This document shows, one piece after another, positions 14,128 through 22,063 of a DNA stretch of 64,000 bases. The notes under the pieces were generated by a model, which saw only the letters and a list, made by a program, of their open reading frames with translations, was not told the origin of the DNA and did not search any database. Origin of the DNA: Ricordea florida (lineage: Eukaryota > Cnidaria > Anthozoa > Corallimorpharia > Ricordeidae); contig OX453282.1 of the NCBI GenBank assembly GCA_949710005.1, positions 2,935,001 through 2,999,000 of the forward strand, read 5' to 3'. Position 1 is the first letter of the stretch, and each line of letters begins with the position of its first letter. The translations under genes and the position numbers were made by a program.

Positions 14128-17100
14128 ATGAGGTTGTGGACTCACAATGTGTCTTATCTCTGCTTCATACTTCGTCGTTCGTGGAACATCGTTTGTCTGA
14201 GAACTCTTCGTAATCAGGCTTCAATTAGGAGACATACACTTTACGATGTTCTCAATGTTTCACCCTCTGCTACTCAGGCAGAAATCAAAAGTGCGTACTA
14301 TGAGTTATCTCTGAAATATCACCCGGATCGGAATAGTGATGAAGCGGCACAAATGGTTTTTACAGGTTAGTTGTGTTGACTGTTTAGAGCAAGCTGATTA
14401 GGGCGAGATTTGGAATGATTTCCGCACAGGTCCTTACTTCATTATGGATGCTGTAGCCATACTGTTTCATTCTGCAATAGCAAGAAATGTTTACATGTGC
14501 ATTATCCTAAACAATTCATCTGCTGCATGCATAATGAAGTAGGGACCAGTGCGGAAATCTTGCGGAAATCTTGCCTAAGATTTCCGCATCGTCCCATACT
14601 TTATTGTGCATGCTGTAGCTGAATTGTTTAGGGCAATGCATGTGAAAACATTATATTGTCATGTTTTTGAAGAACGAAACAGTATTGCCACAGCATGCAT
14701 AATAAAGTATGGGGTAATATGCAGACCTAGCCCGAATTAATGCTTACTTAAAATTCATTGATTTAGAAGCTCTAGTTATTGCTTAATTTTGGCTCCTAGA
14801 GAACACACATAATCCTTTGTAAGCACTTACCAAGGGTTATGTGCGTAGCATTAGATGATATCTAATGCTTTATACCAGCTGCTAGAGTAACTACATGTAG
14901 AAAGCCCATTAGAGCTAAACAAAATTTAATTCAAGATTGGGTAGAGATGTCATAACATGCCATGGAAATTTCTTTGGCAACTCAATGCAAAATAAAAGCG
15001 TCCTCTAAAAATGAGGGTTGAGGTAAGGAAAGGAGAAGGGCATTGCAGTATACTGTTAGTGCTCCATGTTGTAAAAACTTGACATACATATATTATGTGA
15101 TATGTATCCACTGTGTGATCCTTCTATGTCTTATTTGACTGAATAAAATGTTTTGCACCTGCCTGATTGAGCAAAATATTTTGTTTTTGGTTTGATGCAG
15201 AAATTGCAAGGGCTTACAGTGTTTTGGGTAGTCTTAATTCAAGGAGAGAATATGACAAGACAATTGGGACCTACTACACAATGAGAAGCTCCCCTAAGAA
15301 AGGAAGTGGAGAGAAGGTGTTGAGACTGACAGATGAAATGTTAGAGATTGACATGAAAGGAATCAAAGAGGTACTGACGTTGCTTGAGATATAAAATTGA
15401 ATGTACAGCACTGTTTGTAAAAAAATGCTAATAAAACGTACACATAGTAATTTGTATGTATTGTATCACACATAATTTAAGAATAGGAGCCATGCGGAGC
15501 ATCAAAAATTTTGTTCCCATAGCTACTCTGGAAACAGTTGATAAGGGCTTAGTTCAGCCATATTTTGAATACTGTTCTCCTTTGTGGGACAACTGCAGAA
15601 AATTACTGAACCAAGAACCAAGTAGTAATTCTTGCCAGGTAGCACTTCTCATCAGAGAATACCATTCACTTTCTTACATGTTACTTCAAAGGATTTCTTG
15701 TGAAGAAATTGTTTCTTCATGGGAAGTGAATGGGTTACTGTACTGTTAATTATGTATAAAATGTTTGGAAAGTGTTCATATAGCAAAGGTATAAAAAAAT
15801 AAGAAGTGGAAAACAGTAGGTCAATTCAGACTGCCATTTTGTTTAGAACTTTACATTTTAGTTAAATTGAGAGGGTTAATGTACATGTGATTGTGTGAGA
15901 AATGTTTTAAATTTACCTGGAAGCAATTAAGTAGTCCTTGAAAAGAAAAATTTGTCAAGCCAGAAGTGAAAGAGTTACCACTGATGCTTCATGTATTTTG
16001 TATATTTTTGTTTATTTTGCAGAGTGGAGTTTTCCTAAGTACTATTGCCACTTTGAGCACTGTCATGTCAATTCCTGTCAGGCTATTAAATGTGTCTGTA
16101 TCTTGTGGTGGGATTCACTCTCATGATATGCGAGTGTTACAACTACTACGACAGATTTGTAATGGAACACTAGCTGCCAGTGCTGGTTTGTCAACTGTGA
16201 CATACATCCCTGGAGACTTGTTAAGTGGAAATTTTTCTGCAGAAGCTGGAAGACTGGGGTAGATTACCAAACAATTTGTCCTTATATAAAGAACAGTATA
16301 TATTTGTTTACGGCGGTAATTAAACTTTCTAGGTTTTCAAAAATCTTTGTCATCGAGGTTTACAAGTTGGATGGCAAAATTATTTATTTGACTCATTTTT
16401 TTTGTTGTTTTCATTTTGTTTGTATGGCTGGAAGCAACATACGTGTAATGGTAATTGCAAGGGATATGCAACAGAATAGCATTAGTTTGGTCTATGTGAT
16501 TTCATGACATTGATTACCATTGAAGCATGTCCTTTTTTAGCCTACAGGTCAACTCCCTTGGACTTCAAAAAAGTGTCTGCAATTGCCTGAGCTGACGTAT
16601 ATGATTAATATTTTTATTAATTTTTTTATTACAGGCAGTTAAGCCTGTTATTGGCAGCAGCACTTCCATGCCTACCATTCACACCAGTCCCAAAGTACAC
16701 AAAATGTAACAGACTACAGCTAAAAGGATCTACACATTCTCGCAAAGAAATAATTCATGCTGACTACATCCAGACAGTGAGTATTCATGTTGCCCTCTTT
16801 GTTTTAGAGTCAAGCACTTTTTTTCCATACCAACAGTTATTTCTTAAACATTAGAATAAAACAAATACATTCAAACAACTATTTTCTGTTATAACTTTGT
16901 TTGACGTTTTTATTATTTTAGGTAAGCAAGCCCTTTATCAACAACTTTGGTTTTGATTTTGCTTGCGACATCCGGAAAAGGTACAGTGCAAAAACAATGG
17001 CAGTTAAAAATATAAGTTGTTTGAACACAATACATGTACACATGTCTGAGAAGAGGAAAATTTATATACAGCATTTAATTGATATCGCTTGTCAATCAGT

Positions 17101-17499
17101 TGTCAGAATAAATTTATAAACCATTCTGAATGAAACATCCTTATAACGGTTTAAGTCAATACATACCTCTTATTAATCGAGTTCGAGGTCCGTACTGTAA
17201 AATACGGACCGAGTTTTTTTCCCGTCGATTTATGGCCCAAGCGCGAAGCGCGCGGGCCATAAATCGTCGGGAAAAAACGAGGATCCGTATTTTACAGTAC
17301 GGAACGAGAAAACGAGGTTAATAAGATATTTATTATATCTCTGGAGTCATTTTGGTGACCAAAACAAACTTTAGCGGGCCGTACAGGGAAGTACGGCCAG
17401 CTAAATTGACCAATCACAGCGCGCGTACTAACTGAGAGATATAATAAAGTAGGTTAATACATTTGTCTGTTAACCCTTTCACTCCCAAGGGGTCTCCAT

Positions 17500-21100: not shown

Positions 21101-22063
21101 TATCTGCAAATGTTTTATATTTCGCTTAAAATGCATATAATTTTACTCTATAACTGTACAAAACATATCAAGATTGAAAAAGAACCATCTTAGTCGGTAG
21201 AATCTCGCCACAAATCTGTTGTTCACCATCAAAAACAGACATTCACAATTTGTATGAAAATTTATGTGGCTGACCTTGGTCCGGATAGTCGCACTGTAAT
21301 AATAATTTTCAACTTGTTTAACATACAGTAGCTGAAGGACTGATTTTTAGTCTCTCATGAATTACATACTTTGCTTGTTAGGCGATGTTGTTTATGGCTT
21401 TGGCCAATGGAAAGTCAACTTTGAGAGTGTCTCCGCTGACCAGACGAGCCAAGGCCGTTATCAAAGCGATTGAAGTCTTTACACAGGTAATATAATTTGT
21501 CACTGTCATCTTATTCTCAGGTGTCAGCAGAGTAGTATGGTCCGTAGCGTGTCAGACTTGCGACCAAGAGTTCTGGGGTTAGAAACCTGATAATCGCACG
21601 TTGTTTCTTTAGACAAGAGACTAGACTACATACTGTCTCTCTCCACCCAGGTGTAAATAATTACTGGCGATGTGATACTCCGTGGGGGCTTCATGTTACA
21701 GAAACCGTGATTAACCCCGACCGGGTGGAAGGAGGGTCCTTTTTTTCCCTGATAAGAGTCGGGTAGGAGTGTAGCTGCAGGTATTATACGTTACACTCTG
21801 CTTAGGTTTTGAAGCATGGACTAAAAGAGATTGTCTTTTTTGCCTTGCATTGTCTTTCTGTTGCGTAACTAACGCAAGGTGCATTCACTCTTCAGGTCAA
21901 GTTCAAAGTGTCGTCACCCACTGTAAGCCAAGTTTCAAAATTAAAGACTGTACTTGTCCAGTGCGAAGGAGAAGGACTTGTTAATGAAAACTTGGTGACA
22001 GACGAAGACGAGGAAGAGGAAGAGGAAGAGGACGACGGAATGGAAATAGAAGACGCTGCTTGA
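14128..22063 (+). CDS. J domain fused to an RNA 3'-phosphate cyclase-like domain (11 exons)
   Basis: Exons 14128-14365, 15201-15370, 16023-16258, 16635-16776, 16922-16980, 18294-18435, 18748-18872, 19222-19280, 20891-20985, 21382-21486 and 21896-22063 all have GT/AG borders and join without a frame break into 512 residues. An in-frame TAA lies directly before the ATG. Residues 1-36 are Arg-rich with no acids, like a mitochondrial presequence. Residues 37-100 are a J domain with HPD at 65-67, closest to DNAJC30. From about 125 on it follows [16 protein letters not shown] in place of the first strand and Gly loop, [13 protein letters not shown], then LFMALANG. The Arg-rich substrate loop and the catalytic-His segment are replaced (LTRRAKAVI), so cyclase activity is unlikely. 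The acidic tail is Glu/Asp-rich. One exon (15201-15370) carries the end of the J domain and the start of the cyclase domain, which argues for a true fusion. Reading through intron 2 would give a J-only protein stopping at 15394. Confidence 0.8.
14405..14745. repeat. nested inverted repeats in intron 1
   Basis: The blocks GATTTCCGCAC, TACTTCATTATG, GCATGCATAATGAAGTA and AACAATTCATCTGC/GAATTGTTTAGG recur in alternating orientation, forming two adjacent fold-backs. It is a MITE-like insertion in the first intron of the J-cyclase gene. Confidence 0.6.
15471..15620 (+). pseudogene. LINE reverse-transcriptase fragment in intron 2
   Basis: A short frame reads [20 protein letters not shown] and then [20 protein letters not shown]. 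This is the thumb-region pattern seen in many LINE polymerases. It begins and ends abruptly and lies between exons 2 and 3 of the J-cyclase gene. Confidence 0.6.
17150..17445. repeat. fold-back MITE in intron 5
   Basis: Nested inverted repeats: CCGTACTGTAAAATACGG and its complement near 17283-17300, and CGATTTATGGCCC/GGGCCATAAATCG around a GCGCGAAGCGCGC core. Further TATTAA/TTAATA arms extend outward. It is a palindromic non-coding element. Confidence 0.7.
17471..18221. repeat. six tandem copies of a 130-bp palindromic unit in intron 5
   Basis: Identical units begin at 17471, 17601, 17731, 17861, 17991 and 18121. Each starts TAACCCTTTCACTCCCAAGG and ends with the complement CTTGGGAGTGAAAGGGTTA, making a 101-bp fold-back element. 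Copies are joined by GGGAGATAGTTTTTAA repeated twice. No base differences between copies were noticed. Confidence 0.92.
19400..19527. repeat. small fold-back in intron 8
   Basis: The stretch with GTGGTTTAAATTTTATTTTC (starting near 19419) is followed by its complement GAAAATAAAATTTAAACCA with a loop of about 45 bases. The arms extend out to GGTTGTATATGTTGTGG. It is a MITE-like insertion just before the larger transposon. Confidence 0.75.
19533..20803. mobile_element. 1.27-kb non-autonomous DNA transposon with CATATG target duplication
   Basis: Terminal inverted repeats begin TGACCGGGCACGGGATTTCG and extend about 38 bp. Flanks are CATATG on both sides (19527-19532 and 20804-20809), a 6-bp target duplication. 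The interior has dozens of AAACGG/CCGTTT units and no transposase frame. It sits in intron 8 of the J-cyclase gene. Confidence 0.88.

What the first reader, a model, noticed from the sequence alone, without database searches (positions are those of the whole stretch)
14128..22063. J-domain chaperone fused to an RNA 3'-phosphate cyclase-like protein
Eleven exons with canonical borders join without a frame break. Exon 15201-15370 holds both the end of a DNAJC30-like J domain (HPD intact) and the first strand of an RTCA-like domain, so the fusion is not an artefact of merging neighbours. I know of no J domain joined to a cyclase of this family. An Arg-rich leader suggests a mitochondrial protein; DNAJC30 is mitochondrial. 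A co-chaperone that recruits Hsp70 to RNA ends or a repair complex would be a new idea.
Basis: partly seen in the sequence, partly recalled or inferred. Interest (0 to 1): 0.88.

Follow-up and report, generated by a model that had tools for sequence, protein, structure and literature searches.

The report
Coral chaperone fused to dead cyclase
Corals and soft corals carry an undescribed protein that joins the Hsp70-switching domain of a mitochondrial chaperone helper (DNAJC30-type) to an RNA-end cyclase that has lost its active site, which makes it a probable new adaptor for the Hsp70 machine rather than an RNA repair enzyme.

Summary
The fusion is real. Eleven exons (14128-22063, +) join in frame into 512 aa: Arg-rich leader, J domain (38-98, HPD intact), whole RTC fold (about 125-490). 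Nine full-length relatives exist in stony- and soft-coral-type sequences, several on short contigs without introns, so the join seems as old as that split. A second intact copy lies 222 kb away (dN/dS 0.29).

Parent-type genes persist here. The RTC half is a genomic copy of RTCA: 9 of 9 introns share column and phase with the RTCA gene 0.4 Mb away, against 0 of 8 for RCL1. The J half groups with DNAJC30, which also stands alone.

The parts
14128..14365 (+). Exon 1: Arg-rich leader (aa 1-37) and first part of the J domain with HPD (codons 14320-14328)
   Evidence: splice model; Pfam DnaJ 38-98; leader 7 K+R, 0 D+E
15201..15370 (+). Exon 2: end of J domain (to about 15256), linker, first strand of RTC ([10 protein letters not shown]), ending at the position of RTCA intron 1
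   Evidence: same exon in 8 of 8 ORFs read
16023..16258 (+). Exon 3: RTC domain; equals RTCA exons 2+3 (RTCA intron QHMT|G absent)
16635..16776 (+). Exon 4: RTC domain
16922..16980 (+). Exon 5: RTC domain
18294..18435 (+). Exon 6: RTC domain and start of RTC insert
18748..18872 (+). Exon 7: RTC insert
19222..19280 (+). Exon 8: RTC insert
20891..20985 (+). Exon 9: end of insert and RTC domain
21382..21486 (+). Exon 10: RTC domain; Arg444 (codon 21445-21447) stands where RtcA has its nucleophile His309
21896..22063 (+). Exon 11: end of RTC domain, acidic tail, stop
15371..15394 (+). Intron-2 read-through to a stop, with AATAAA at 15430: a J-only short isoform is possible but unsupported
   Evidence: of 10 of the 13 hits that I read, two have a leader and neither ends here

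Best explanation
A class C J-domain protein of Anthozoa, made by joining a copy of a DNAJC30-type gene to an intron-bearing genomic copy of RTCA before stony and soft corals split. The basic leader most likely carries it into mitochondria; there the HPD J domain switches mtHsp70 (HSPA9) to its client-holding state. The RTC half keeps the cyclase fold but not the catalytic residues and serves as the client- or RNP-binding module, so the protein delivers mtHsp70 to one target, much as RCL1 re-used the same fold in the small-subunit processome. I think an RNA-protein complex of the mitochondrion (mitoribosome or transcript processing) more likely than naked RNA ends. Shown here: gene structure, domains, predicted fold, loss of active site, descent of the RTC half, intact second copy. 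Well supported: J-half descent, age. Inferred: mitochondrial import, Hsp70 partner, client.
Against: No localisation or partner data. The leaders' amphipathic moment is not above that of shuffled leaders (P 0.30-0.85, 12 of 12); absence of D/E in the window leader alone has P 0.036. Net charge of the RTC half (+5 to +17, tail left out) overlaps that of RTCA (+6, +8, +8 and one fragment -2), so charge does not point to RNA. The J domain of the model has pLDDT of only 40-76 per block. The constraint test rests on 13 + 13 differences, and the copies may be alleles. J tree: 81 columns, long branches, the program warns that such joins may be false. A cyclase-only isoform model exists in Xenia.
Confidence: 0.6

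Rival explanations
1. A narrower form of the main reading (the two overlap): a mitochondrial J-protein whose dead cyclase binds a protein client only, for example complex I or the Clp machinery as DNAJC30 does, with no RNA or RNP role.
For: DNAJC30 acts in complex I subunit exchange (PMC7954600); a critical contact of yeast Rcl1 is a protein, Bms1 (PMC4914098); RNA-end chemistry is gone.
Against: The DNAJC30 C-terminal part with its hydrophobic segment is absent from the fusion, so the old client site is probably not inherited; the RTC half stays basic in 11 of 11 fusions (pI 8.7-9.7), though RTCA is too.
Confidence: 0.3
2. The protein is a cytosolic or nucleolar J-protein, e.g. a helper of cytosolic tRNA splicing or pre-rRNA processing.
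For: RTCA and RCL1 act outside mitochondria (recalled); leader statistics are only suggestive.
Against: DNAJC30 is mitochondrial; basic leaders poor in D/E are kept although their sequence is poorly conserved.
Confidence: 0.15
3. The gene mainly makes two separate products: a J-only protein ending at the intron-2 stop and an RTC-only protein from an internal start.
For: AATAAA at 15430 just after the intron-2 stop; Xenia P0019 is an RTC-only isoform X2.
Against: Nine full-length fusions, six of them (P0001-P0005, P0009) with longest contigs of 1690-4443 bases and an unbroken ORF; of the 10 hits that I read, none has a leader and ends at the intron-2 stop.
Confidence: 0.07
4. The RTC half is still an enzyme, using a new residue in place of the His.
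For: Arg (9 of 11) or Lys (2 of 11) is constant within each group at the His site; Asp/Glu at the D287 site in 11 of 11 and Gln at Q288 in 10 of 11; 41 of 147 RTCA-constant columns kept.
Against: Glu14, Gln18, Arg21, Arg40, Arg43 and Gln51 equivalents lost as well, 11 of 11; 17 of the 41 kept columns are Gly or Pro, as for a kept fold.
Confidence: 0.05
5. Artefact: two neighbouring genes merged by the reader's splicing.
For: None found.
Against: One exon holds both parts, 8 of 8 ORFs read; full-length homologues; second intact copy.
Confidence: 0.01

Closest known systems
DNAJC30 (WBSCR18), mitochondrial class C J-protein
   Same: J domain: best PDB match (2yua, E 7.7e-17); groups with DNAJC30 89/85; basic leader
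   Different: C-terminal part with hydrophobic segment replaced by an RTC fold; J domain split by an intron, whereas the DNAJC30 gene here is one open frame
RTCA, RNA 3'-terminal phosphate cyclase
   Different: Nucleophile His and six further positions changed; NCBIfam RTCA model 166.7 bits against a cut-off of 250.05; J domain added
RCL1, cyclase-like protein of the SSU processome
   Different: 23-28% identity, 0 of 8 introns shared; nucleolar (PMC4914098), no J domain
mL77 (6yxx), DnaJ-like protein of a mitochondrial ribosome (trypanosome, recalled)
   Same: J domain on a mitochondrial RNP protein (E 4e-07 over query 36-119)
   Different: Only the J region matched

Membership tests
J-domain protein, class C | J domain with HPD | tested here: met
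   DnaJ E 2.5e-21; HPD 11 of 11
J-domain protein, class C | no DnaJ zinc finger or DnaJ C-terminal domain | tested here: met
   Pfam finds only DnaJ, RTC and RTC_insert at E 0.001
J-domain protein, class C | stimulates Hsp70 ATPase | not testable with these tools
   needs an assay
DNAJC30 | J domain in the DNAJC30 group | tested here: met
   89/85 in a tree of 20 rows and 81 columns; 9 of the 30 own-genome J loci used; long branches
DNAJC30 | DNAJC30-type C-terminus with hydrophobic segment | tested here: not met
   replaced by RTC; the standalone gene on C6 has it
DNAJC30 | mitochondrial location | tested here: inconclusive
   basic leaders, but amphipathicity not above shuffles
RTCA (active cyclase) | RTC fold with insert | tested here: met
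RTCA (active cyclase) | His nucleophile (E. coli His309) | tested here: not met
   Arg in 9, Lys in 2 of 11 fusions; role from PMC6277466
RTCA (active cyclase) | EGGGQ..R and RxxR active-site residues | tested here: not met
   changed in 11 of 11; residue roles recalled, numbering
RTCA (active cyclase) | descent from the RTCA gene | tested here: met
   introns 9 of 9 against 0 of 8 for RCL1; fusions 97/96 beside RTCA, RCL1 furthest
RCL1 | score above the RCL1 model cut-off | tested here: not met
   121.4 against 227.95 bits

The most novel reading that the evidence does not exclude
A third branch of the cyclase family, a pseudo-cyclase, has become the RNA- or RNP-recognition head of a mitochondrial Hsp70 co-chaperone in corals, giving Anthozoa an RNA-guided chaperone step (mitoribosome or transcript maturation) not known in other animals.
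Probability: 0.3. Interest if true: 0.82.

Novelty: new variant of a known kind. Interest (0 to 1): 0.62.

Why it matters
J-proteins decide where Hsp70 works, and their extra domains reveal new clients. This one carries a domain not reported on a J-protein in the papers searched, is kept by stony and soft corals alike, and shows the steps of its making: both parent-type genes stand in the same genome and the introns point to a DNA-level copy of RTCA. Beside RCL1 it is a further case of the cyclase fold being kept while its catalytic residues are given up, which suggests that the fold is a good binding platform. It may also bear on coral mitochondria under heat stress (speculative).

Tried and rejected
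Merged-gene artefact: rejected. RCL1 origin of the RTC half: rejected by introns (0 of 8) and identity. Active cyclase: unlikely on residues. Decaying gene: two intact copies and an excess of synonymous change, Fisher P 0.003 on 13 + 13 differences. Leader amphipathicity as proof of import: no signal above shuffles. RNA binding from net charge: not discriminating.

Rows left out: P0008 and P0010 (truncated models); P0022 (RTCA fragment) from the RTC tree; P0003 and the second copy from the J tree, where 9 of 30 own-genome J loci were used. Splice borders of RTCA and RCL1 were set by hand from homology and frame, without transcripts.

Papers: looked for a J domain with a cyclase, DNAJC30 with RTCA, or coral/cnidarian J-protein architecture. 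Searches returned none; two, one listed (a tRNA ligase review, not opened); one search listed 20 of 53, seen as titles and abstract starts, none about such a fusion; one paper, unrelated by title and abstract start. Searches were background (none). Opened by passages only: PMC6277466, PMC7954600, PMC4914098. 'Not in print' holds only for this open-access library and these searches.

Taxon: the window is a hexacoral lineage apart from the named ones; I could not name it. One search, meant to find standalone DNAJC30 elsewhere, gave 13 hits of 37 candidates; the 10 I read are pieces or variants of the fusion.

Full report
Pfam finds DnaJ at 38-98 (E 2.5e-21), RTC at 137-462 (7.3e-42) and RTC_insert at 309-406 (2.5e-17). 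The NCBIfam models for RTCA and RCL1 score 166.7 and 121.4 bits, both under their cut-offs (250.05 and 227.95), so the RTC half is divergent and nearer to RTCA.

The fusion is conserved. A search of 5.8 billion proteins (7998 candidates scored) gave 17 hits, of which eight have all three domains: P0001-P0007 at 62-66% identity over 93-98% of the model, among them Desmophyllum pertusum (P0006) and Pocillopora verrucosa (P0007), and P0009 at 40%. P0008 (Acropora digitifera) and P0010 (Oculina patagonica) are models with J and RTC but no insert. A second search with the RTC part of P0009 gave a ninth, P0018 of the soft coral Dendronephthya gigantea, 78% identical to P0009, besides Xenia P0019 (RTC only, named isoform X2), RTCAs of two sponges (P0020, P0021) and an unnamed RTCA fragment (P0022). 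The longest contigs listed for P0001-P0005 and P0009 are 1690-4443 bases, yet carry an unbroken ORF of about 500 codons, while the gene here spans 7.9 kb with ten introns; I take them for transcripts (the source label 'lgn' is not explained by the tool). Unnamed coral-type ORFs show exon 2 alone, with the end of the J domain, the linker and the start of RTC, running into intron-like sequence: 8 of 8 that I read (P0024-P0028, P0030, P0033, P0034) of 11 such hits. A tree of the RTC part puts the fusions together (97/96), split into a hexacoral and an octocoral group (each 100/99), RTCA outside and RCL1 furthest. The join is thus probably as old as the split of stony and soft corals; repeated joining is not excluded but less simple.

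The genome (538 Mb, 48 contigs; window = C11:2935001-2999000) shows at least four RTC genes. One is RTCA (C11, about 2.5405-2.5453 Mb; 11 exons, 369 aa, catalytic set intact). One is RCL1 (C11, about 8.5 Mb, 9 exons, 373 aa). One is the window gene. The fourth is a second fusion at C11:2727086-2735301, 222 kb upstream: all 11 exons and splice sites intact, 13 of 512 residues different, 13 synonymous and 13 non-synonymous changes, dN/dS 0.29, Fisher P 0.003. Four of the 13 residue changes are in the leader. It lies in a repeated stretch that matches window 1-27165 in pieces of 82-98% identity with insertions. Segmental duplication or retained allele: not settled.

Origin of the RTC half. Aligned with RTCA of the same genome, 9 of 9 introns of the RTC half (introns 2-10 of the fusion) fall in the same column and phase as RTCA introns; RTCA has one more. 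None of RCL1's 8 introns falls on either set; the nearest are 3 to 7 columns off. The half is therefore a genomic copy of RTCA, and exon 2 joins the end of the J part to what was RTCA exon 1. RTCA lies 0.4 Mb away on the same contig. Borders of RTCA and RCL1 were set by hand, without transcripts.

Origin of the J half. Human DNAJC30 (2yua) is the best PDB match (E 7.7e-17). Of 37 DnaJ matches in the genome, 30 given as loci, the best for human and salmon DNAJC30 is L021 on C6, one open frame of 278 codons (233 aa from the first Met) with a DNAJC30-like tail and a hydrophobic segment. It is also the best non-fusion match of the window J domain and the best of all for a soft-coral fusion J domain. 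In a tree of 20 J domains the 9 fusions form one group (90/89) and join DNAJC30 (89/85); the alignment is short (81 columns) and some branches long, so the exact branching is unsure. Parent-type genes thus survive apart.

How it most likely works. The J domain looks fit to work with an Hsp70. The leader is basic in all 12 sequences checked (6-12 K+R), free of D/E in 9 of 12, with Rx[FYL][AS] in 6 of 12, but its amphipathic moment does not exceed shuffles; with a mitochondrial parent (DNAJC30, complex I repair; PMC7954600, passages) I put mitochondrial import at about 0.8. The RTC half can hardly be a cyclase by the known mechanism. RCL1 shows how such a fold lives on: RNA cyclase-like, essential in yeast for pre-rRNA cleavage, with a disputed nuclease activity and, in yeast, a needed contact to Bms1; the matching human mutant still made 18S rRNA (PMC4914098, passages). 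By analogy the dead cyclase is the targeting head of the co-chaperone. An RNP client is my first choice, a protein-only client the main rival; the data do not decide between them.

Novelty. J-proteins with odd extra domains are a known kind; this architecture was not found in the papers searched. [quoted passage not shown]

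Noticed in passing
window 30205-35387: An open frame of 1415 codons with an endonuclease VII match and, on the other strand, an integrase core (rve) frame; more long frames follow to about 44142, three of which gave no Pfam hit. Perhaps a Maverick/Polinton-like element; only scanned.
   Followed up: no
window 17470-18222: Perfect tandem array, 130-bp unit, 5.8 copies, in intron 5; the second gene copy does not align there.
   Followed up: partly
window about 19520-20808: An insertion in intron 8 with inverted ends, rich in AAACGG repeats, seen by eye; the second copy aligns through it.
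   Followed up: no
C11:2714074-2740172 against window 1-27165: A repeated stretch; pieces from window 3456 to 17163 are 91.7-96.3% identical apart from repeats within, but 18220-24543 is 97.6% and exons 8-11 are identical, as if by gene conversion.
   Followed up: partly
window 45661-46692 and 60287-61009: A rhodopsin-type GPCR frame and a C-type lectin frame.
   Followed up: no
L009 2981-3046: RTCA intron 1 of this genome appears to use a GC-AG splice pair.
   Followed up: no
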